64,000 nt of DNA from an uncultured Bacteroidia bacterium (GTDB lineage: Bacteria > Bacteroidota > Bacteroidia > Bacteroidales > F082). Position 1 is the stretch's first letter; each line of letters starts with the position of its first letter. The notes beneath the pieces are model-generated. The model had not been told where the DNA came from and made no database searches. It saw nothing but the letters and a program-made list of their open reading frames with translations. This document shows positions 1,004 through 64,000 of the stretch, one piece after another. A program made the position numbers and the translations under genes. The stretch lies in assembly GCA_902769875.1 (NCBI GenBank), contig CACXQV010000022.1, positions 24,159-88,158 of the forward strand, read 5' to 3'.

Positions 1004-2458
1004 ATGCAATTCCATCCCGAAAAATGCCGCATCCCCGACGAGCCGAACCGCCCGTTTATCTCCTCGGAAGAGATTTGGGACTACATCAACAACACGAAAA
1101 GCACGCCTGAGCGTGTGCGCGAAATCATCCAAAAGTCGTTGGACAAGAACCGCCTGACGATGGAGGAGACCGCCGTCCTCGTCAACACCACCGACCCCGC
1201 ATTGGTGGAGGAAATCAAGGAAGGCGCCCGCGAACTGAAACGCCGCATCTACGGCAACCGCATTGTGCTGTTTGCCCCCTTGTATGTGGGCAACTACTGC
1301 GTGAACAACTGCGTTTATTGCGGTTTCCGTTCCTCGAACAAGGAACAAATCCGTACCACTTTGACCGATGAGGAACTCATCCGCAATGTGGAGGCTCTCG
1401 AAGACGACGGCCAGAAGCGCCTCATCCTCGTCTATGGCGAGTCGCCGAAGTATTCGCCTGAGTATATTGCCCATACCGTGAAAGTTACCTACGCCACCAA
1501 GAAAGGCAAGGGCAGCATTCGCCGTGTGAACATTAATGCCGCACCGCTTGATGTGGAAGGTTTCCGCATCGTGAAAGAGGCGGGCATCGGCACCTATCAG
1601 ATTTTCCAAGAGACCTATTGCCCAGAGATTTATAATGAATACCACCCCGCCAACACCAAGAAAGGCGACTACAACTACCGCTTGACTTCTATGGACCGCG
1701 CCCAGCAGGCCGGCATCGACGACAACGGCTTGGGTATTCTTTTTGGCCTTTATGATTGGCGTTACGAGGTGCTGGCCATGATCCGCCACACCAACCACCT
1801 GGAGGCTTGCTTCAATGTGGGTCCGCACACCATCTCGTTCCCGCGCATCAAGGACGCATCGGGTCTGAACATCGACACGAAGTATTTTGTTGATGATGAG
1901 ACCTTTGAGAAAATTATCGCCATCTTCCGCTTGGCCGTGCCTTACACGGGTATGATTTTGACCGCCCGTGAGGATGCTGCTTTCCGCGCCAAGGCCATCG
2001 AATACGGCATTTCGCAAATCGACGGCGGCACCAACTTGCAGATTGGCGACTACAAATATCACCACGAGGAAGAGGAGAAGAACAGCGATAAGCAGGAGGA
2101 CCAGAACCTGCACCGAGAGCAGTTCAAGATCGGCGACGACCGCTCGTTGGGCGACATCATCGACAAGCTCCTCGACCACGACTTCATCCCGAGTTTCTGC
2201 ACCGCCTGCTACCGTCTGGGTCGCACGGGCGAGCACTTTATGGAATTCAGTGTGCCGGGCTTCATCAAGCGCTACTGCACGCCGAATGCCATCCTCACTT
2301 TGAGCGAATATTTGGTGGACTACGCCACTCCTGAAGTCGCTGCCAAAGGCTGGAAGTGCATCGAGAACAACTTCAAGAACGTCGCCCCGAAGTTCTTGGA
2401 TGAACTGAAGATCCGTATTGAGCGCATCAAGAACGGCGAGAGAGACCTGTATTTCTAA
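1004..2458 (+). CDS. hydG: [FeFe]-hydrogenase maturase HydG (radical SAM tyrosine lyase)
   Basis: HydG cleaves tyrosine to p-cresol and supplies the CO and cyanide ligands for the H-cluster of [FeFe]-hydrogenase. The 484-residue length fits the family. The radical SAM cluster motif CX3CX2C is at Cys99, Cys103 and Cys106 (NYCVNNCVYCGF). The HydG-specific C-terminal motif CX2CX22C is at Cys399, Cys402 and Cys425, and it separates HydG from the related ThiH. The ATG at 1004 lies 20 bp after the regulator remnant, so both probably share one transcript. HydE, HydF and the hydrogenase itself are not in this window. A diverged copy of the last 41 codons lies downstream at 3369-3491. Confidence 0.95.
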   Translation: MQFHPEKCRIPDEPNRPFISSEEIWDYINNTKSTPERVREIIQKSLDKNRLTMEETAVLVNTTDPALVEEIKEGARELKRRIYGNRIVLFAPLYVGNYCVNNCVYCGFRSSNKEQIRTTLTDEELIRNVEALEDDGQKRLILVYGESPKYSPEYIAHTVKVTYATKKGKGSIRRVNINAAPLDVEGFRIVKEAGIGTYQIFQETYCPEIYNEYHPANTKKGDYNYRLTSMDRAQQAGIDDNGLGILFGLYDWRYEVLAMIRHTNHLEACFNVGPHTISFPRIKDASGLNIDTKYFVDDETFEKIIAIFRLAVPYTGMILTAREDAAFRAKAIEYGISQIDGGTNLQIGDYKYHHEEEEKNSDKQEDQNLHREQFKIGDDRSLGDIIDKLLDHDFIPSFCTACYRLGRTGEHFMEFSVPGFIKRYCTPNAILTLSEYLVDYATPEVAAKGWKCIENNFKNVAPKFLDELKIRIERIKNGERDLYF

Positions 2459-3312: not shown

Positions 3313-3368
3313 AGCGTTAAATGTTTGGGATTGACTTGCTAAACAAAATAACAAAAATTATGCCATAA

Positions 3369-3491
3369 GTAGCCGCCAAAGGCTGGAAGTGCATCGAGAA
3401 CAACTTCAAGAACGTTGACCCGAAGTTCTTGGATGAATTGAAGAACCGCATAGAGCGGATAAAGAACGGCGAGCGTGATTTGTATTTCTAA
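3369..3491 (+). pseudogene. Displaced second copy of the hydG 3' end
   Basis: The 123 bp here match 2336-2458 of hydG at 109 positions by my count and end with the same TAA. Read in frame they give 39 codons (AAKGWKCIENNFKNV onward, ending RDLYF). Only two of these differ from HydG (Ala to Asp, Ile to Asn); the other changes are synonymous. That pattern means the copy diverged while still under selection as part of a working hydG, so it is not a recent local duplication. No start codon or upstream part of hydG is present. Confidence 0.9.
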
Positions 3492-45391: not shown

Positions 45392-45418
45392 AACAAACTT
45401 TTATTTCCTTAAAATGAC

Positions 45419-45546
45419 TGCGGAAATCTTTGAAAAATCCGCAACGTGATTGCGGATATTCTTGGAAAATCCGCAACGTGATTGCGGATATTCTTGGAAA
45501 ATCCGCAACGTGATTGCGGAAATTCACGAAAAATCCGCAACGATGC
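45419..45546. repeat. Four 32-bp dyad repeats upstream of the second AAA ATPase gene
   Basis: Four abutting 32-bp units start at 45419, 45451, 45483 and 45515. Units 2 and 3 are identical. Each unit holds an inverted repeat with arms TGCGGA and TCCGCA around a variable A/T-rich centre, and each of the first three ends in ACGTGAT. There are no spacers, so this is not a CRISPR array. Confidence 0.95.
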
Positions 45547-45621
45547 TGCAAAAATAACAAGGTTTATTCGAATAGCAACCATTTTGTTTCAAGTTTTTTT
45601 GCCAAAAGCCGCAAAAATCCC

Positions 45622-57951: not shown

Positions 57952-59196
57952 ATGAAACAAAACATCGAGATAATGGCTCCAGTAGGCTCATACGAAGCCC
58001 TCGCAGCCGCCATACAAGCTGGTGCAGGAAGCGTTTATTTCGGCATCGGCAAACTCAACATGCGCTCGCGCTCGGCGAAAAACTTCACCCTCGATGACCT
58101 GCGCCAATTGGCCGAAACCTGCAACGAAAACGGCGTAAAGAGTTATGTCACAGTGAATACCGTGATTTACGACGAGGAAATGGAGGAAATGCACCAATTG
58201 CTCGACGCGATTAAGGCCAACGGCATTTCGGCCATCATCGCCTCCGACCAAAGCGTCATCCAATATGCCCGGCAAATCGGCGTTGAGGTACACATGTCCA
58301 CGCAATGCAACATCACCAACCTTGAGGCCGTGCGTTATTATTCGCAGTTCGCCGACGTGATGGTGACTGCCCGTGAGTTGAACATCGACCAAGTTCGTTA
58401 TATCACGGAACAGATTGAAAAACAGCAGATTCGCGGCCCAAAGGGAGAATTGGTGCGCATCGAGGTGTTTTGCCACGGGGCTTTGTGTATGGCCATTTCG
58501 GGCAAGTGCAACCTCAGCCAAGACCTGTTCAATTCTTCTTCCAACCGTGGCGCTTGTTTGCAACTATGCAGGCGTGGCTACGATGTGCGCGAGCGCGAGG
58601 AAGGCTACGAGTTGACCCTTGACAATGAATACATTATGTCGCCGAAAGACCTTTGCACCTTGCCGTTCTTGGACCGGGTTTTGGATGCAGGCGTAGAAGT
58701 GTTGAAAATCGAAGGCCGTGGCCGCTCGGCTGAATACACCAAAATGACGGTTTCGGTCTACAGCGAGGCGGTGAAGGCCATCCGCGAAGGCGCATTCACG
58801 CAAGAGAAAATCGACGCTTGGATGGAACGGCTGAAAAGCGTTTATAACCGTGGCTTCTGGGACGGCTATTATTTGGGCCGGCGCACCTTCGAGTGGTCGA
58901 AGCAATACGGTTCGCAAGCCACCCAAACCAAGGAATATATCGGCTTGATTACCAACTATTACAGCAAGTTGGGCGTGGCCGAAATCCGAATGGACAGCCA
59001 CGACCTCAAACTTGGCGAACAAATCATGATTATCGGGCCGACCACCGGCGTTTATGAGGACACTTTGAGCGAAATCCGCGTGGATTTAGGCTCGGTTGAG
59101 CAAACCGTCAAAGGCGATTTTTGCTCCATTCCCGTGAAGTCGTTGGTGAGGCGAGGGGATAAGGTTTATAAAGTGGTAAAAGTTGAAATGATGTAA
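57952..59196 (+). CDS. U32-family protein (TrhP/YegQ-like tRNA hydroxylation factor)
   Basis: This 414-residue protein resembles TrhP-type U32 members, needed for 5-hydroxyuridine formation at the tRNA wobble position. It has [20 protein letters not shown] at the start, [20 protein letters not shown], the U32 signature [19 protein letters not shown] and [10 protein letters not shown] with conserved cysteines. [12 protein letters not shown] and a small C-terminal beta-barrel follow. A second U32 gene (22827-24773) is RlhA-like. It has no repeat insertions, unlike that one. Confidence 0.85.
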
Positions 59197-59267
59197 ATTT
59201 TGTGGCATTGTTGTGACCACAATTGAAAAATTGTGTTCTTGTTTCTTCAAAAACCAGATGAAATGTA

Positions 59268-59275
59268 TATTTTTG
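59268..59275 (+). promoter_or_regulatory. -7 box TATTTTTG for the toxin-antitoxin pair at 59296
   Basis: The box lies 20 bp before the antitoxin ATG. Confidence 0.6.
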
Positions 59276-59295
59276 CAGCATAAAATGTTTGAGAG

Positions 59296-59436
59296 ATGGA
59301 AGATGTCTTGACAAAAAAAAGAAAAAGCCAATTGCATTTGAAATCCGAAGAGTTTGAACTTACTCCTCCTGAGAGGCTTCATACTGTTCAAGAATTTATG
59401 ACCAAATTGGAACAGGCAGTTCTTGAAAGATTATGA
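59296..59436 (+). CDS. Small antitoxin (46 residues)
   Basis: This short frame begins MEDVLTKKRKSQLHLKSEEF and ends in a helix (VQEFMTKLEQAVLERL). Its TGA overlaps the toxin start as ATGA (59433-59436), and a promoter box precedes it. No named family is recognised. Layout and size parallel the pair at 54325. Confidence 0.7.
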   Translation: MEDVLTKKRKSQLHLKSEEFELTPPERLHTVQEFMTKLEQAVLERL

Positions 59437-59741
59437 AGGAATATAAAGTCAAGATTCACGATACTGCGTTTGCCGACATAGATGATATTGCGGATTTCAT
59501 CGTTAAAGTCAGCACCCCAGAACACACTCTTGAATTTACAAAACGTTTGGGTGCAGAGATAATGTCATTAAGTTACCTCGCTGATGTAATCCCGGAAAGT
59601 CATTGGTTGTCGGTGCGGAGATACCATCCACACGCCAAACAAATGAGGACGCACAACAAAAAATTAACCATTATCTTTCATATTGAGAATGATACGGTAA
59701 TTGTTGATAGAATTGTCGCTTCGTCAACAATTGGGTCATAA
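59433..59741 (+). CDS. ParE/RelE-family toxin
   Basis: This 102-residue protein has the ParE-type order: YKVKIHDTAFADIDDIADFI (helix pair), LGAEIMSLSYLADVIPESHW, then RYHPHAKQMRTHNKKLTIIF and the last strand DTVIVDRIVASS. The core Arg and His residues of RelE/ParE strands are plausible but not decisive for target choice. Its end lies 16 bp before the PHP phosphatase start, so the two may be co-transcribed. Confidence 0.78.
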   Translation: MKEYKVKIHDTAFADIDDIADFIVKVSTPEHTLEFTKRLGAEIMSLSYLADVIPESHWLSVRRYHPHAKQMRTHNKKLTIIFHIENDTVIVDRIVASSTIGS

Positions 59742-59757
59742 CCATTCAATTTTTGAT

Positions 59758-60606
59758 ATGCAAAACTTCAATCTACATACCCATAGCATTTATTCCGACG
59801 GCAAATCGCAGCCTCGCGAAATCGTGGAAGAGGCTGTCCGTCAGGGCTTGACGACATTGGGCTTTTCCGAGCATAGCCCTTTGCCTTTCGACAACAATTT
59901 CTCAGTAAAGGAGGCCGATATGCCCAAATATGTAGCCGAAATTGCCCAACTGAAAGCGGAATTCAAAGGCAAAATCAACATTTATTGCGGTTTGGAGGCC
60001 GATTACCTCACGGGCGTTTCCGAGCCTTTCGCCGTGACCAAAGAAAAGTATCACCTTGATTATCTGATTGGTGGCGTGCATTTGGTCGGCCAGTCGGCCA
60101 ATCCAGACGAAATCTGGTTCATCGACGGACCGAAATGGGAAGTTTACGACGAAGGCCTGCAAAAGTTCTTCGATGGCGACATCCGTCGCGCCGTGCGCCG
60201 ATTTTTCGAGCAGTCGAATGAAATGATTGAAAACGAGCCGTTTGACATCATCGCCCACTTCGACAAAATCAAGATGCACAACCGTGACCGCTATTTCCAC
60301 GAGGACGAGCCTTGGTATCGCAAGTTAGCTTTAGAAACCCTCGACCTCATTCGCGAGAAAGGCTTGATAATGGAAATCAACACGCGCGGCATCTACAAGA
60401 AACGCTATAACGGCTTCTATCCTTCGCCTTGGCTGATGGAGGAGGCCTGCAAGATGGGCGTCCCCGCCATCATCTCCGCCGACGCGCACCATTTCAGCGA
60501 AATCACCCTCGAATTTTCCGCCGCCGAGGAAGCCTTGAAGAAAGCGGGGTATCGCAGTGTGGTGAATTTCAAGGATGGACGATGGGTTGAGGTGGCGATT
60601 TCGTGA
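59758..60606 (+). CDS. PHP-domain histidinol-phosphatase-like protein
   Basis: This 282-residue metal-dependent phosphoesterase of the PHP family has the expected motifs in order: HTHSIYSDG (motif I), GFSEHSP (motif II), GLEADY (acidic metal ligand), IAHFDKIK (motif III) and SADAHH (motif IV). HisJ-type members dephosphorylate histidinol phosphate in histidine synthesis; other PHP proteins act on other phosphoesters, and no his genes are nearby. The start at 59758 (MQNFNLHTHS) puts motif I at the N-terminus as usual. A diverged copy of its last 15 codons lies at 62085-62132. Confidence 0.88.
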   Translation: MQNFNLHTHSIYSDGKSQPREIVEEAVRQGLTTLGFSEHSPLPFDNNFSVKEADMPKYVAEIAQLKAEFKGKINIYCGLEADYLTGVSEPFAVTKEKYHLDYLIGGVHLVGQSANPDEIWFIDGPKWEVYDEGLQKFFDGDIRRAVRRFFEQSNEMIENEPFDIIAHFDKIKMHNRDRYFHEDEPWYRKLALETLDLIREKGLIMEINTRGIYKKRYNGFYPSPWLMEEACKMGVPAIISADAHHFSEITLEFSAAEEALKKAGYRSVVNFKDGRWVEVAIS

Positions 60607-60645
60607 AATATTGCTGTGAAGACGATTGGTTTTCGGGATTTTTGC

Positions 60646-60653
60646 TATTTTTG
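60646..60653 (+). promoter_or_regulatory. -7 box TATTTTTG for the HicB-like gene
   Basis: The box lies 25 bp before the ATG at 60679. Confidence 0.55.
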
Positions 60654-60678
60654 CGGATGGAAATAACGAAGCAAAGTT

Positions 60679-60876
60679 ATGAATAGGACATACAAAATCA
60701 ACTTAAGGAAAGAGGAGGAAGGAGGATATACGGTGTTTGTGCCTTCGTTGCCGGGTTGCATCACATACGGGGAAACCGTCGATGAAGCCATAGATATGGC
60801 CAAGGAAGCCATTGAACTTTATATAGAGGAATTGCAAGATAGGGGTGAATACGTTCTTGAAACAGGCTGGAATTGA
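60679..60876 (+). CDS. HicB-like antitoxin without HicA
   Basis: This 65-residue protein matches the HicB partial RNase H-like fold: INLRKEEEGGYTVFVPSLPG, then CITYGETVDEAIDMAKEAIE and a short helix (LYIEELQDRGE). HicB proteins bind and block the HicA RNA-cutting toxin. No HicA-like frame (about 60 residues, dsRBD-like, Gly-x-His) lies up- or downstream. It may act alone as an orphan antitoxin, or the toxin was lost. The 190 bp that follow (60877-61067) are A/T-rich, and I see no gene there. Confidence 0.8.
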   Translation: MNRTYKINLRKEEEGGYTVFVPSLPGCITYGETVDEAIDMAKEAIELYIEELQDRGEYVLETGWN

Positions 60877-61073
60877 ATAACACCTTTTGTTTAGACCATA
60901 ATATTTGAATTCAATAAGTGGAAATCATAATATACAAAACAAACAGCACATATATCAAAGAACAACTAAAACAGACACATAATCATTTAGAATAGCATTT
61001 CAAAAACGAATTCTTAGCCCTAAATTTCCACATAGTCTCGTTAGAGACGGCTCAACAAGAAAACGTTATGAAA

Positions 61074-61159
61074 CGCCATTATTTGGCGTGGAATAACTTG
61101 AAGTTGAGCGGGCGTGGAAACCCTAGGGCTGACAAGTTGATCAAATTCCACGCTTTTTT
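61074..61159 (+). ncRNA. Possible structured leader or attenuator before the HTH gene
   Basis: GCGTGGAAT (61086-61094) pairs with ATTCCACGC (61145-61153), and inside it AACTTG (61095-61100) pairs with CAAGTT (61133-61138). Six T residues then run directly into the ATG at 61160. A competing hairpin CGCCA...TGGCG (61074-61088) overlaps the left arm. The strong outer stem plus T-run looks like an intrinsic terminator, and no ribosome-binding site is free. Confidence 0.5.
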
Positions 61160-61369
61160 ATGCACATCGGGCAACATATCAAAGAGGTCATGCGACAGCA
61201 AGGTGTTACGGCCACAAAGTTGGCTGAGGACATTTGTTGTGCTCGCCCGCATATCCATAGGATTTTCCGTAAGGAGAATATGGATATTGCCCTGCTTGAG
61301 CGTATTTCCAAGGCATTGAATTATGACTTCTTCCGCGACCTTTCCGAAGAGTTTCAAGGGAAAGTGTAA
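61160..61369 (+). CDS. Small XRE-type helix-turn-helix regulator
   Basis: This 69-residue protein is a single HTH_3 domain: IGQHIKEVMRQQGVTATKLA (helices 1-2), EDICCARPHIHRIFRKENMD (recognition helix) and IALLERISKALNYDFFRDLS. The start at 61160 gives the usual N-terminus. A terminator-like hairpin ends one base before the ATG, so expression may depend on read-through or refolding of that leader. It lies in the small accessory segment between the PHP gene and its displaced 3' end. Confidence 0.82.
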   Translation: MHIGQHIKEVMRQQGVTATKLAEDICCARPHIHRIFRKENMDIALLERISKALNYDFFRDLSEEFQGKV

Positions 61370-61432
61370 CCAATGAGGTTACTGTAACTGAATTGGTTAC
61401 TTGGAAAAATGCTTTGAAACAAATGGAGATAG

Positions 61433-61440
61433 TATTTTTG
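61433..61440 (+). promoter_or_regulatory. -7 box TATTTTTG for the lipocalin-like lipoprotein gene
   Basis: The box lies 24 bp before the ATG at 61465. Upstream at about 61376-61402 are GGTTAC/GTAAC pieces that could serve as a regulator site. Confidence 0.5.
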
Positions 61441-61464
61441 CTTTCAATTATAAACAAAGAAAAA

Positions 61465-61923
61465 ATGAAGAAAACAGTAAAAATCTTTGCCTTAGTGCTA
61501 TTGGTAGTAACAACAATGGTATCTTGCACTAAAAACAATGGAAATAAAAATGCTAACTTGATTGTTGGCAAATGGAAATGTGTGAGTTATAATGTGAATT
61601 ATACCGATTATTTTGATTCCGATTATTTTAAATGGACAAAAGTTGGTGATTTTTGGAACTTTTCAAAAGATGGAACACTGAATTTTGTGGCGTATGGAGC
61701 TCCAAAACATATTGAAGGACAACATATGCCAATTGTTGAGATACCCGTTTCGACAAATTACAATATTTCTGAAAAATGGCTCACTTTTTCTTGTGTTTAT
61801 TGCGGCAATTATTTGGGGGGGGATTCTTTTCCATTTGAAATTATGGAGATTTCAAAAGACAAACTAATTATAGAGTTGGATAGAATGTGTCATTTCCATA
61901 TTGAATTTGAGAAAGAAGACTAA
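61465..61923 (+). CDS. Lipocalin-like lipoprotein
   Basis: This 152-residue lipoprotein has the lipobox TTMVSCTK. IVGKWKCVSYNVNY is the typical opening strand of small lipocalin-like domains (W in GxW), and the end alternates strands (FEIMEISKDKLIIELDRM). It is probably periplasmic or surface; the ligand is unknown. The start at 61465 begins the signal peptide. Base composition is A/T-richer than in the housekeeping genes, as expected for recently gained DNA. Confidence 0.7.
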   Translation: MKKTVKIFALVLLVVTTMVSCTKNNGNKNANLIVGKWKCVSYNVNYTDYFDSDYFKWTKVGDFWNFSKDGTLNFVAYGAPKHIEGQHMPIVEIPVSTNYNISEKWLTFSCVYCGNYLGGDSFPFEIMEISKDKLIIELDRMCHFHIEFEKED

Positions 61924-61942
61924 AGTATCATCTTATGACAAC

Positions 61943-61980
61943 AAAAACACTCTCGTCTAACCATTGGCGAGAGTGTTTTT
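61943..61980 (+). terminator. Intrinsic terminator after the lipoprotein gene
   Basis: Arms AAAAACACTCTCG (61943-61955) and CGAGAGTGTTTTT (61968-61980) pair perfectly over 13 bp, and T residues follow. Confidence 0.85.
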
Positions 61981-61988
61981 TTGTCCTT

Positions 61989-62060
61989 TTGTGAAAAATA
62001 TGCATCTTTACCCTAAAAAAGTGCCGAAAAATATGCATTATTTTTGCATATTTTTCACAA
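61989..62060. repeat. Third dyad-repeat site (AAAATATGCA type)
   Basis: TTGTGAAAAATATGCA (61989-62004) and its exact complement (62045-62060) flank another direct copy of GAAAAATATGCAT (62026-62038), which itself pairs with the right arm. The two direct copies are 33 bp apart. The layout resembles the dyad arrays upstream of the two AAA ATPase genes, but no ATPase is next to it. Confidence 0.7.
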
Positions 62061-62084
62061 CTTCAAGTAATACACTATATTAAA

Positions 62085-62132
62085 AGTGCTGTGAATTTCA
62101 AGAACGGGCAATGTGTTGAGGTGGCGATTTGA
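62085..62132 (+). pseudogene. Displaced second copy of the PHP phosphatase 3' end
   Basis: The 45 bp from 62085 match 60556-60600 at 38 positions by my count and read SAVNFKNGQCVEVAI, then stop; the intact gene reads SVVNFKDGRWVEVAIS. The two copies enclose the HicB, HTH and lipocalin genes. No upstream part of the gene is present. Confidence 0.85.
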
Positions 62133-62173
62133 TGAAAAATTCAATGATAATTCCTTTTTTTGAAGTTTTTTGC

Positions 62174-62181
62174 TATTTTTG
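62174..62181 (+). promoter_or_regulatory. -7 box TATTTTTG for the DUF3791/DUF3990 operon
   Basis: The box lies 18 bp before the ATG at 62200. Confidence 0.55.
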
Positions 62182-62199
62182 CCACGGAATTAGTGTCTT

Positions 62200-62421
62200 A
62201 TGTCAAAACGAACATTGGATATTATCGAGTACACGATTGCTTTGGTGAACGAGTTTGCCAAGCGTTTCGGCCTTTCCGAGGCAGATTCTTTCAGGTATAT
62301 TGACCGCTACGATGGAATGAAACTTATAGAGCAATGCTATGGAGTTATGCACACGCTTTCGTTTGCCGACAGTGTTGATGGTATGGCCTCATATTGCAGA
62401 AGACACGGAGGGTCGCTATAA
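62200..62421 (+). CDS. DUF3791-like protein, first copy
   Basis: This 73-residue helical protein reads IIEYTIALVNEFAKRFGLSE, then ADSFRYIDRYDGMKLIEQCY. DUF3791 proteins are small partners of DUF3990 proteins, probably antitoxin-like. Its stop overlaps the next start (TAATG at 62419-62423), so translation is coupled. Confidence 0.7.
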   Translation: MSKRTLDIIEYTIALVNEFAKRFGLSEADSFRYIDRYDGMKLIEQCYGVMHTLSFADSVDGMASYCRRHGGSL

Positions 62422-62888
62422 TGCTTCTTCATCACGGCTCAAATATAATGATTGAGGAGATTGACCTTGCCAAATCCCGTCCAAATAAGGATTTTGGGAA
62501 GGCTTTCTATCTTTCGGCGGACGAAGAACAAGCCCGAGAAATGGCCAAGTTCAAAGTGCTGACAGGTGGAGGAGATGTTTGTGTCTCCGTTTTCGAGTTT
62601 GACGAGCAAGATTTGGATATGTTGAAAATCAAACGCTTCGAGAACTATACCGAAGAATGGGCAGAATTTGTTTACAATAATCGCGACGAGAAGCAGGATT
62701 TCCAGCACGATTTTGATTTGGTCTATGGACCGATTGCCAATGATACAGTTGGTGTTCAGATTCGTGACTTGAGGGAAAGGAAGATTTCTTTTGATGCGTT
62801 CCTCAAAAACCTTGAATATTATAAAGGTATCACTTTCCAATATGCTTTTTGCACACCTTTGGCCATCTCAAAACTGAAGAAAGTATGA
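62421..62888 (+). CDS. DUF3990-like protein (ADP-ribosyltransferase-fold candidate toxin)
   Basis: This 155-residue protein starts MLLHHGSNIMIEEIDLAKSR and continues with NKDFGKAFYLSADEEQAREM, which matches the DUF3990 N-terminal pattern (H-G-S, D-F-G-x-G/A-F-Y). That pattern corresponds to the NAD-binding strands of ADP-ribosyltransferase folds. VYGPIANDTVGVQIRDL and QYAFCTPLAISKLKK complete the family. It sits between two DUF3791-type genes with overlapping start and stop codons. Most likely it is a toxin or effector held by one or both partners; the target is unknown. Confidence 0.75.
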   Translation: MLLHHGSNIMIEEIDLAKSRPNKDFGKAFYLSADEEQAREMAKFKVLTGGGDVCVSVFEFDEQDLDMLKIKRFENYTEEWAEFVYNNRDEKQDFQHDFDLVYGPIANDTVGVQIRDLRERKISFDAFLKNLEYYKGITFQYAFCTPLAISKLKKV

Positions 62889-63115
62889 ATGTAACGCCAG
62901 CCGAATTCCGATATTTGAAAGAAACCCTATCGAAAGATTTAATAGCGATGCTGATGGAGCGCAAGGGTATGAGTATGGACGAAGCCTTCAGATGCTACTA
63001 TGAATCAACGACTTTCCAAAAGATAGCCAATCCAGAAACGGGATTGTTCTTCCAAAGTCCTGGTTATGTGTATTCGTATTTGGAAGAAGAGTTTAAACTA
63101 AATAAAAAATCATAA
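62885..63115 (+). CDS. DUF3791-like protein, second copy
   Basis: This 76-residue protein reads TPAEFRYLKETLSKDLIAML, then ERKGMSMDEAFRCYYES and SPGYVYSYLEEEF. The layout resembles the first DUF3791-like gene in helix placement. It begins within the stop codon of the DUF3990-like gene (ATGA overlap at 62885-62888) and ends 1 bp before the S8 protease start. Confidence 0.65.
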   Translation: MNVTPAEFRYLKETLSKDLIAMLMERKGMSMDEAFRCYYESTTFQKIANPETGLFFQSPGYVYSYLEEEFKLNKKS

Positions 63116-64000
63116 ATGAAACCATCAATCATCAAATCAACAATCGTTTTGGCGATGGCGTTGCTGCCTTTGTTTTCTTTGGGGCAAGAACGAATCAACA
63201 AGACCGAAAACGAGACTTTCGTGGAAAACGAATTCATCATTTGGTTGGAGCAAGGCGTGGATGCCGCTACTTTTTCCGCCAACTCAAATGTGGGGATTTT
63301 GCCCAAAAGAATGTTGTCCAAAAGGCTGAATATCTGGCTTTTCGAAATCACTGACAAGGCTGAATCACGAGAAGTGAAGATGGAGCGGCTTTGGAAAGAT
63401 CCCAATGTCCGTGTCATCCAAAACAACCATACGAACATCACGCTACGCGAGGCGATTCCCGACGACCCCTATTTCGGCCAACAATGGGCACCGGCCATTA
63501 TGAGCCTGCCGCAGGCTTGGGAAGAGTTCACCACGGGCGGTGTCACGGCGACAGGCGACACCATCGTGGTGGCCGTCATCGACGGCGGTGCCGATTGGGG
63601 CCACGAAGACCTGAATTGCTGGATAAACACCCGCGAAATCCCCAACAACGGCATCGATGACGACGGCAACGGTTATGTGGATGACTATCGTGGCTGGAAT
63701 GCCTACAACCACAATGGAAATGTCGGCGCCAACCATCACGGCACCCATGTTTCAGGCATCATCGGAGCGGTTGGCGACAATGGAAAGGGCGTTTGTGGCG
63801 TGAACTGGAACGTGAAGGTCCTGTCCATTTGCGGGAGTTCGAGCAACGAATCCATCGTGGTGGAGGCCTATTCCTACGCTTTGGAAATGCGTGCCCGCTA
63901 CAATGAAACCAACGGCGAGGAAGGCGCTTTCATCGTGGCCACCAATTCATCCTTTGGCGTCGATTACGGCAATCCCGATGATTATCCCATCTGGTGCTCG
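63116..64000 (+). CDS. S8-family (subtilisin-like) secreted serine protease, 3' end outside the window
   Basis: This open frame of 295 codons has no stop before the window edge. A signal peptide (STIVLAMALLPLFSLGQ) is followed by a propeptide-like region (NEFIIWLEQGVDAATFSANS), then the S8 catalytic domain with the Asp motif VVAVIDGGADWGHEDL and the His motif HHGTHVSGIIG. The Ser motif (GTSxA) must lie beyond the window. Bacteroidota members often carry a T9SS sorting domain at the end, which cannot be checked here. It starts 1 bp after the second DUF3791-like gene, though a functional link is unlikely. Confidence 0.9.
   Translation, partial: MKPSIIKSTIVLAMALLPLFSLGQERINKTENETFVENEFIIWLEQGVDAATFSANSNVGILPKRMLSKRLNIWLFEITDKAESREVKMERLWKDPNVRVIQNNHTNITLREAIPDDPYFGQQWAPAIMSLPQAWEEFTTGGVTATGDTIVVAVIDGGADWGHEDLNCWINTREIPNNGIDDDGNGYVDDYRGWNAYNHNGNVGANHHGTHVSGIIGAVGDNGKGVCGVNWNVKVLSICGSSSNESIVVEAYSYALEMRARYNETNGEEGAFIVATNSSFGVDYGNPDDYPIWCS

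What the first reader, a model, noticed from the sequence alone, without database searches (positions are those of the whole stretch)
60556..62132. PHP phosphatase 3' end also duplicated around an accessory segment
The last 45 bp or so of the PHP gene recur at 62085 (38 of 45 positions equal by my count). HicB-like, HTH and lipocalin-like genes lie between. This is the same architecture as at hydG: intact gene, cargo, then a diverged 3' remnant. Two cases in 64 kb suggest a repeated process of 3'-end-targeted insertion of small cargo, comparable to integration at tRNA ends but into protein genes and without a local integrase.
Basis: partly seen in the sequence, partly recalled or inferred. Interest (0 to 1): 0.72.

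Follow-up and report, generated by a model that had tools for sequence, protein, structure and literature searches.

The report
Two stacked gene islands after php
The repeated tail of a housekeeping gene is a scar left where two alternative sets of small accessory genes, each found alone between the same two housekeeping genes in related bacteria, were joined end to end, apparently by recombination rather than by a dedicated insertion enzyme.

Summary
The php 3' end (60556-60612) recurs at 62085-62141 (47 of 57 bases; best of 200 controls 33) and similarity continues over a promoter to 62182.

The interpretation changes. php and purC (just past the window end) are convergent neighbours; the DNA between them is a variable island in this gut/rumen Bacteroidales genus. 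Of 48 php loci mapped, 13 have purC directly behind php and 4 have the DUF3791/DUF3990 genes directly behind php and its promoter. So 62085-62182 is the usual left end of a second island. Immediately left of it, 62055-62081 is a remnant of the purC 3' end (22 of 27 bases; 0 of 2,000 controls), preceded by a hairpin found before 11 of 38 purC ends. Two complete islands are joined head to tail: php-HicB-HTH-lipoprotein-hairpin-purC' / php'-promoter-DUF3791-DUF3990-subtilase-...-purC. Two other genomes share the joint.

Best mechanism: recombination between congeners, homologous in php, illegitimate at the other end (inferred). No 3'-end targeting was found; breakpoints differ and a genome sample gave no further case.

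The parts
59758..60606 (+). php: intact PHP-domain phosphoesterase, left core flank of the island
   Evidence: Pfam PHP E 1.8e-24; a match in 97 of 99 genus genomes, G000 counted
60607..60656 (+). leader with promoter-like sequence of island 1 (-7 TATTTTTG at 60646-60653)
   Evidence: TAnnTTTG at +36..+42 after the php stop in 23 of 48 loci; the promoter type is recalled
60679..60876 (+). HicB-like antitoxin, 65 aa against 75 aa in relatives, no hicA found behind it
   Evidence: HicB_lk_antitox E 8.5e-15; relatives with HicA
61160..61369 (+). small HTH protein, a recurrent gene of these islands
   Evidence: HTH_3 E 6.5e-6; matches in many loci
61465..61923 (+). putative lipoprotein, weak lipocalin similarity
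   Evidence: Lipocalin_4 E 0.003, below cut-off
61943..61980 (+). terminator-like hairpin behind the lipoprotein gene
   Evidence: 15-pair stem plus T run
61987..62057 (.). AT-rich palindrome (hairpin); in 11 of 38 purC ends aligned it lies, whole or in part, directly before the purC end
   Evidence: -21.3 kcal/mol, z -6.4; three copies in G000, all at this locus
62055..62081 (-). purC 3' remnant (last codons and stop), right end of island 1
   Evidence: 22 of 27 bases equal to own purC end and to six other purC ends; control maximum 20, 0 of 2000 reach 22; alignment
62085..62141 (+). php 3' remnant, left end of island 2 (stop 62130-62132)
   Evidence: 47 of 57 bases to own php, 50 of 57 to G098 php
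62142..62182 (+). promoter-like sequence of island 2 (-7 TATTTTTG at 62174-62181)
62200..62421 (+). DUF3791 protein
   Evidence: Pfam DUF3791 E 5.1e-20; PADLOC PDC-M13A E 4.2e-20
62421..62888 (+). DUF3990 protein
   Evidence: Pfam DUF3990 E 2.4e-43; PADLOC PDC-M13B E 1.6e-43
62885..63115 (+). 76-aa third protein of the DUF3791/3990 module
   Evidence: PADLOC PDC-M13C E 9.6e-16
63116..64000 (+). subtilase with Por secretion tail, continues past the window; then hairpin, AAA/DUF4143 ATPase, hairpin and purC on L037
   Evidence: Peptidase_S8 E 2.9e-27; map

Best explanation
The segment is a fusion of two alternative alleles of one accessory-gene island. In this genus php and purC point towards each other, and the DNA between them holds either nothing or a set of genes, in many genomes with a promoter-like sequence right behind the php stop codon. 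Shown: the window has island 1 (php tail, promoter, HicB, HTH, lipoprotein, hairpin, purC tail) joined at 62081/62085 to island 2 (php tail, promoter, DUF3791, DUF3990, 76-aa protein, subtilase, hairpin, ATPase, hairpin, purC). Inferred: DNA from a congener carrying island 1 paired with the resident php by ordinary homologous recombination, while its other end, broken inside purC, was joined without long homology to the resident php 50 bases before its stop. The resident island was pushed downstream with its own php tail and promoter. The joint, or the block around it, then passed between species by recombination.
For: purC remnant and php remnant abut. 4 of 48 loci have php-promoter-DUF3791-DUF3990 with no scar (G111, G114, G066, G082) and 13 of 48 have purC 75 to 111 bases behind php. 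Islands of the other kind stand alone between php and purC elsewhere, e.g. G100 php-DUF4160-DUF2442-HTH-(640 bases, content not identified)-hairpin-purC. The joint is shared by G097 (3 differences over 62042-63139) and G094 (2 over 61991-63153), while the subtilase behind differs by about 5% and parts of island 1 by up to 17%. A separate php scar in G022 is joined to an HTH leader at roughly 6-8 shared bases, by eye, and a full HTH gene follows further down, as if that locus were stacked too. Slot content does not follow the php+purC tree: 18 changes on 33 leaves against 15-22 in 500 shuffles.
Against: At the window joint I see at most 1-2 bases of microhomology (by eye), and no left crossover point in php was located. 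The hairpin of island 1 is 95-97% identical to the one before the resident purC while the purC remnant is 81% identical, so the parts have unequal ages or have been converted. No relative was found with island 1 exactly as in the window (HicB-HTH-lipoprotein-hairpin-purC) standing alone. A tandem duplication of one island followed by replacement of cargo would give the same joint. The near-identity of the block around the joint in three species shows later exchange, so the order of events is blurred. I made no search for natural competence in this genus.
Confidence: 0.72

Rival explanations
1. Site-specific or 3'-end-targeted insertion of cargo into protein genes, as integrases do at tRNA ends, here without a local integrase.
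For: Intact gene, cargo, then 3' remnant is the layout after att-type integration; hydG shows a similar layout in six genomes, in three different downstream contexts among the four where enough sequence was held.
Against: The scar starts at php -50 here, about php -75 in G022 and hydG -125: no fixed crossover. It abuts purC'. Other cargo-bearing loci show no scar. No further case among 275 sampled genes at 30 nt or more.
Confidence: 0.08
2. Tandem duplication of one php-purC island by an illegitimate joint purC'/php', followed by replacement of the cargo of one copy by recombination with congeners.
For: Exactly this joint is expected from a head-to-tail duplication; the hairpins of both halves are 95-97% alike.
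Against: The two halves share only tail, promoter and hairpin at DNA level (self-comparison); the maps of 48 loci show no tandem of like islands.
Confidence: 0.15
3. An excised circle carrying island 2 with a purC'/php' joint integrated into the hairpin of island 1 by a single crossover.
For: The hairpin occurs in both islands and would offer the homology; linear DNA can circularise and integrate by single crossover in E. coli (abstract of PMC3240628).
Against: No circle, enzyme or read evidence was available; it needs two rare steps.
Confidence: 0.04
4. Assembly chimera.
For: G000 is a fragmented draft (138 contigs, contamination 5.71) and holds a second php copy on contig C104.
Confidence: 0.01

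Closest known systems
Hotspots of gene exchange without mobile elements, recombining at flanking core genes (Oliveira et al. 2017, PMC5635113; passages seen)
   Same: Variable genes between two conserved genes, no integrase found, content that does not follow the tree of the flanks
   Different: Here two alleles are stacked instead of exchanged, leaving remnants of both core genes at the joint; and in many loci a promoter at fixed spacing behind php serves whatever module follows
Displacement arrays of type VI effector-immunity modules in Vibrio cholerae, and orphaned Rhs 3' regions (Kirchberger et al. 2017, PMC5361080; passages seen)
   Same: A new module enters through homology on one side; the older module is kept downstream with a 3' fragment; the mechanism proposed there is akin to homology-facilitated illegitimate recombination
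   Different: The anchor is a gene whose protein end is unchanged; the displaced module keeps its own promoter; the joint carries a remnant of the opposite flank gene too
Homology-facilitated illegitimate recombination (abstract of PMC3240628)
   Same: One homologous end, one illegitimate end
   Different: Here inferred from sequence only
Genomic islands at gene 3' ends with att repeats, including integrase-less CIMEs (recalled, no call)
   Same: Intact gene, cargo, 3' remnant
   Different: No fixed crossover, no integrase found, opposite-flank remnant inside

Membership tests
Integrase-less hotspot between core genes | Different accessory genes between the same two core genes in related genomes | tested here: met
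   48 php loci: at least 4 module types, 13 empty; purC seen behind php in 37 of the 48 fetched stretches plus the second G094 contig
Integrase-less hotspot between core genes | No integrase or transposase inside | tested here: met
   8 island proteins scanned with Pfam, none called; the ATPase has a TniB-like match of 22.3 bits, cut-off 22.4. A REP-type transposase-like ORF lies beyond purC (by eye)
Integrase-less hotspot between core genes | Raised recombination in the flanking core genes | not tested
   no genome-wide comparison made
Homology-facilitated illegitimate recombination product | One joint without long homology | tested here: met
   purC' to php' joint, at most 1-2 bases shared by eye; G022 joint roughly 6-8 bases by eye
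Homology-facilitated illegitimate recombination product | Other end a homologous crossover with a visible ancestry switch | tested here: inconclusive
   php compared in BLAST pieces with relatives; no clear switch
att-type integration at a gene 3' end | Same crossover position in independent events | tested here: not met
   php -50 against about php -75; only two php events known
att-type integration at a gene 3' end | Integrase in the element | tested here: not met
HicAB toxin-antitoxin | hicA and hicB both present | tested here: not met
   no HicA in the window island by tblastn at E 1e-4; present in G106, G021, G016 and G108, and in two pieces in G095
DUF3791/DUF3990 candidate defence module (PADLOC PDC-M13) | All proteins of one named system present | tested here: inconclusive
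   Best models PDC-M13A, PDC-M13B, PDC-M13C (E 4.2e-20, 1.6e-43, 9.6e-16); whether the letters are components or separate systems was not looked up; activity not testable
REP element for the hairpin | Dispersed copies across the genome | tested here: not met
   three copies found in G000, all at this locus (E up to 0.001)

The most novel reading that the evidence does not exclude
Core-gene 3' ends carried on accessory modules act as portable homology arms: a php (or hydG) tail, with its promoter in the php case, lets toxin-antitoxin or defence-like modules be stacked and spread between these Bacteroidales by the cell's own recombination, an integrase-free cassette system in which each newcomer takes the first slot and older modules keep their own promoter.
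Probability: 0.3. Interest if true: 0.65.

Novelty: new variant of a known kind. Interest (0 to 1): 0.45.

Why it matters
The joint with remnants of both flanking genes is an unusually direct record of how integrase-less hotspots can grow: by adding one allele to another rather than only swapping them. It also suggests how an older module can stay expressed after being displaced, since its promoter travels with the core-gene tail. If general, gene tails downstream of intact genes, abutting tails of the opposite flank gene, would be a searchable mark of such events in genomes without mobile elements.

Tried and rejected
Rejected: plain chance; full tandem php duplication; plasmid or phage origin of the 2,509 bases 60607-63115 (plasmids: two records of Marivirga tractuosa with a 121-base HicB match; phages: no match); a known RNA family (Rfam gathering thresholds, 59000-64000: none); the hairpin as a dispersed REP element. 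At first I read the hairpin copies as recombination sites bounding the modules; the alignment showed instead that the first hairpin continues into the purC end. One six-word paper search (intergenic, hotspot, toxin-antitoxin, displaced, illegitimate recombination, Bacteroid) and one for DUF3990 with DUF3791 returned no paper; no wider claim about print is made.

Limits: the genome-wide test is a sample (381,798 of 3,502,815 bases, outside the window). The 48 loci are 47 genomes plus contig C104 of G000, out of 97 genomes with any php match; eight more distant php loci (L027-L034), looked at without a php-tail copy being recognised, were dropped from later counts, and the rest were not fetched, so scars there could be missed. 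Some of the 48 stretches end soon behind php. A first map used a wrong reading frame for php and was replaced. The tree used the 33 loci with both php and purC of sufficient length; labels were set by me. The purC remnant was noticed by eye before it was tested. The lax rescan also showed 27-base 3'-end copies for two sampled genes, one of them the start of a 32-base tandem array, and several copies inside other ORFs (paralogues).
Full report
What was checked. The window is G000:C22:24159-88158, in a draft genome of 3.5 Mb in 138 contigs. The php 3' end recurs as reported: 47 of 57 bases, 38 of the first 45, against at most 33 of 57 in 200 controls. Similarity goes on beyond the stop to 62182.

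What surrounds it. php runs rightwards; purC (SAICAR synthetase, Pfam E 7.2e-72) runs leftwards at window-equivalent 66721-67665 on locus L037. I mapped 48 php loci: 47 genomes, of 97 with a php match among 99 searched, plus a second php copy on contig C104 of G000, which is probably a contaminant. In 13 of 48 purC begins 75 to 111 bases behind the php stop. In others different genes lie between; in some the fetched stretch or contig ends before purC.

The slot behind php. In 23 of 48 loci a TAnnTTTG box lies 36 to 42 bases behind the php stop (27 of 48 if any place from +15 to +80 is counted). The first gene then starts about 51 to 77 bases behind the stop in most of these, and it differs: HicB with HicA in G106, G021, G016, G108 (HicA in two pieces in G095); DUF4160/DUF2442 in two versions; DUF3791/DUF3990 plus a 76-aa protein in G111, G114, G066 and G082. 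DUF4160/DUF2442 is listed as a toxin-antitoxin pair in a table of PMC12654330 (one passage seen); the DUF3791/3990 trio matches PADLOC PDC-M13 models. On a php+purC protein tree of 33 loci these labels change 18 times, within the range of shuffled labels (15 to 22), so content turns over fast or the flanks recombine too.

What the remnant is. In G111, G114, G066 and G082 the php 3' end is followed by promoter, DUF3791 and DUF3990; for example window 62085-63091 aligns without a break with the end of intact php and what follows it in G082, and 62091-63090 in G111. So the remnant is the usual left end of that island. To its left, 62055-62081 aligns with the last codons and stop of purC, minus strand: 22 of 27 bases with seven purC ends including its own; the best of 2,000 controls is 20. 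Left of that is the AT-rich hairpin (z -6.4) which lies directly before purC, whole or in part, in 11 of 38 purC ends aligned: G000, G094, G018, G022, G024, G071, G082, G097, G098, G100 and G101. The hairpin also occurs in front of the ATPase gene and, in G012 and G024, right behind php, so by itself it does not mark purC; the purC codons do. Both remnants together mean that the right end of one island has been fused to the left end of another.

Shared joint. G097 and G094 have the same joint. Over 62042-63139 G097 differs at 3 sites and over 61991-63153 G094 at 2, while the subtilase behind differs by about 5% and parts of the first island by up to 17%. The joint thus most likely arose once, and the block around it moved recently. 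The first module differs: HicB in the window, DUF2442 in G097, DUF4160/DUF2442 in G094. G094 has php and the joint on two contigs.

Second php scar. G022 has a php tail from about -75 onwards, 797 bases behind php, joined to the leader of the HTH gene where both partners share roughly 6-8 bases by eye, and followed by a DUF4476 gene; a complete HTH gene follows further down. This is a separate event with a different breakpoint.

hydG. hydG tails lie behind cargo in G000, G094, G098, G022, G003 and G101 of 21 loci compared (20 fetched plus the window); in G114 and G018 only a decayed piece is visible by eye, and G002 has the DUF4476 gene without a recognised tail. Where enough sequence was held, the gene after the hydG remnant differs: one ORF in G000, another in G094, a third family in G098 and G101; 12 loci without DUF4476 or remnant have one of several families directly after hydG. 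This fits insertion of a hydG-tail-plus-cargo unit into different resident loci by recombination in hydG. No remnant of the opposite flank was seen there (self-comparison). The two cases share a principle, a new arrival leaves the resident gene tail behind it, but not a target site.

Genome-wide. In 20 sampled stretches outside the window (275 genes of at least 400 nt) no 3' end recurs at 30 nt or more in intergenic DNA; in the window 2 of 44 do; 5' ends gave 5 intergenic hits, mid-gene pieces none. This is 11% of the genome, so rare further cases are not excluded.

Mechanism. Exchange of islands through the flanking core genes is described (PMC5635113, passages), and stacking with displaced older modules has been proposed for type VI effector modules through homology-facilitated illegitimate recombination (PMC5361080, passages). 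I think the same happened here: a homologous crossover in php and an illegitimate end joining donor purC to resident php. Shown are the anatomy, the alternative alleles and the joint; inferred are the direction and order of events. Tandem duplication followed by cargo replacement remains possible.

State of the modules. In the window HicB is 65 aa, against 75 aa in relatives, and no hicA was found, so island 1 may hold only an orphan antitoxin. Island 2 keeps its promoter-like sequence and open DUF3791 and DUF3990 frames.

Noticed in passing
window 1004-2458 and 3367-3491: hydG tail copy behind a DUF4476 gene; in relatives the copy is followed by different genes, suggesting insertion of one unit into several resident backgrounds.
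   Followed up: partly
L040 (G022) about 938-1703 bases behind the php stop: A DUF4476 gene, of the family of the hydG cargo of the window, sits next to the php scar of G022: the same cargo family lies beside core-gene tails at two loci.
   Followed up: partly
G000 contigs C104 and C101: Second copies of php (about 85%) and hydG (92%); C104 is a 4.7 kb contig. Probably contamination from a congener.
   Followed up: no
G098:C9:6240-6266, G097:C20:280-306, G104:C5:2506-2571: Copies of the php promoter region away from the php 3' end (27 bases at 96% in G098 and G097, upstream of php; 66 bases at 76% on another contig of G104).
   Followed up: no
L037, window-equivalent 68195-68656, minus strand: ORF resembling a REP-type (Y1) transposase between purC and phoH, present or absent among relatives; identified by eye, not scanned.
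   Followed up: no
window 59296-59741: Small ORF pair just upstream of php that resembles a ParE-type toxin-antitoxin pair; by eye only.
   Followed up: no
window 45406-45565 and L136 6037-6191: 32-base tandem repeats; in L136 the array begins with the last 27 bases of the gene before it.
   Followed up: no
window 60679-60876: HicB is 10 residues shorter than in relatives and hicA was not found.
   Followed up: partly
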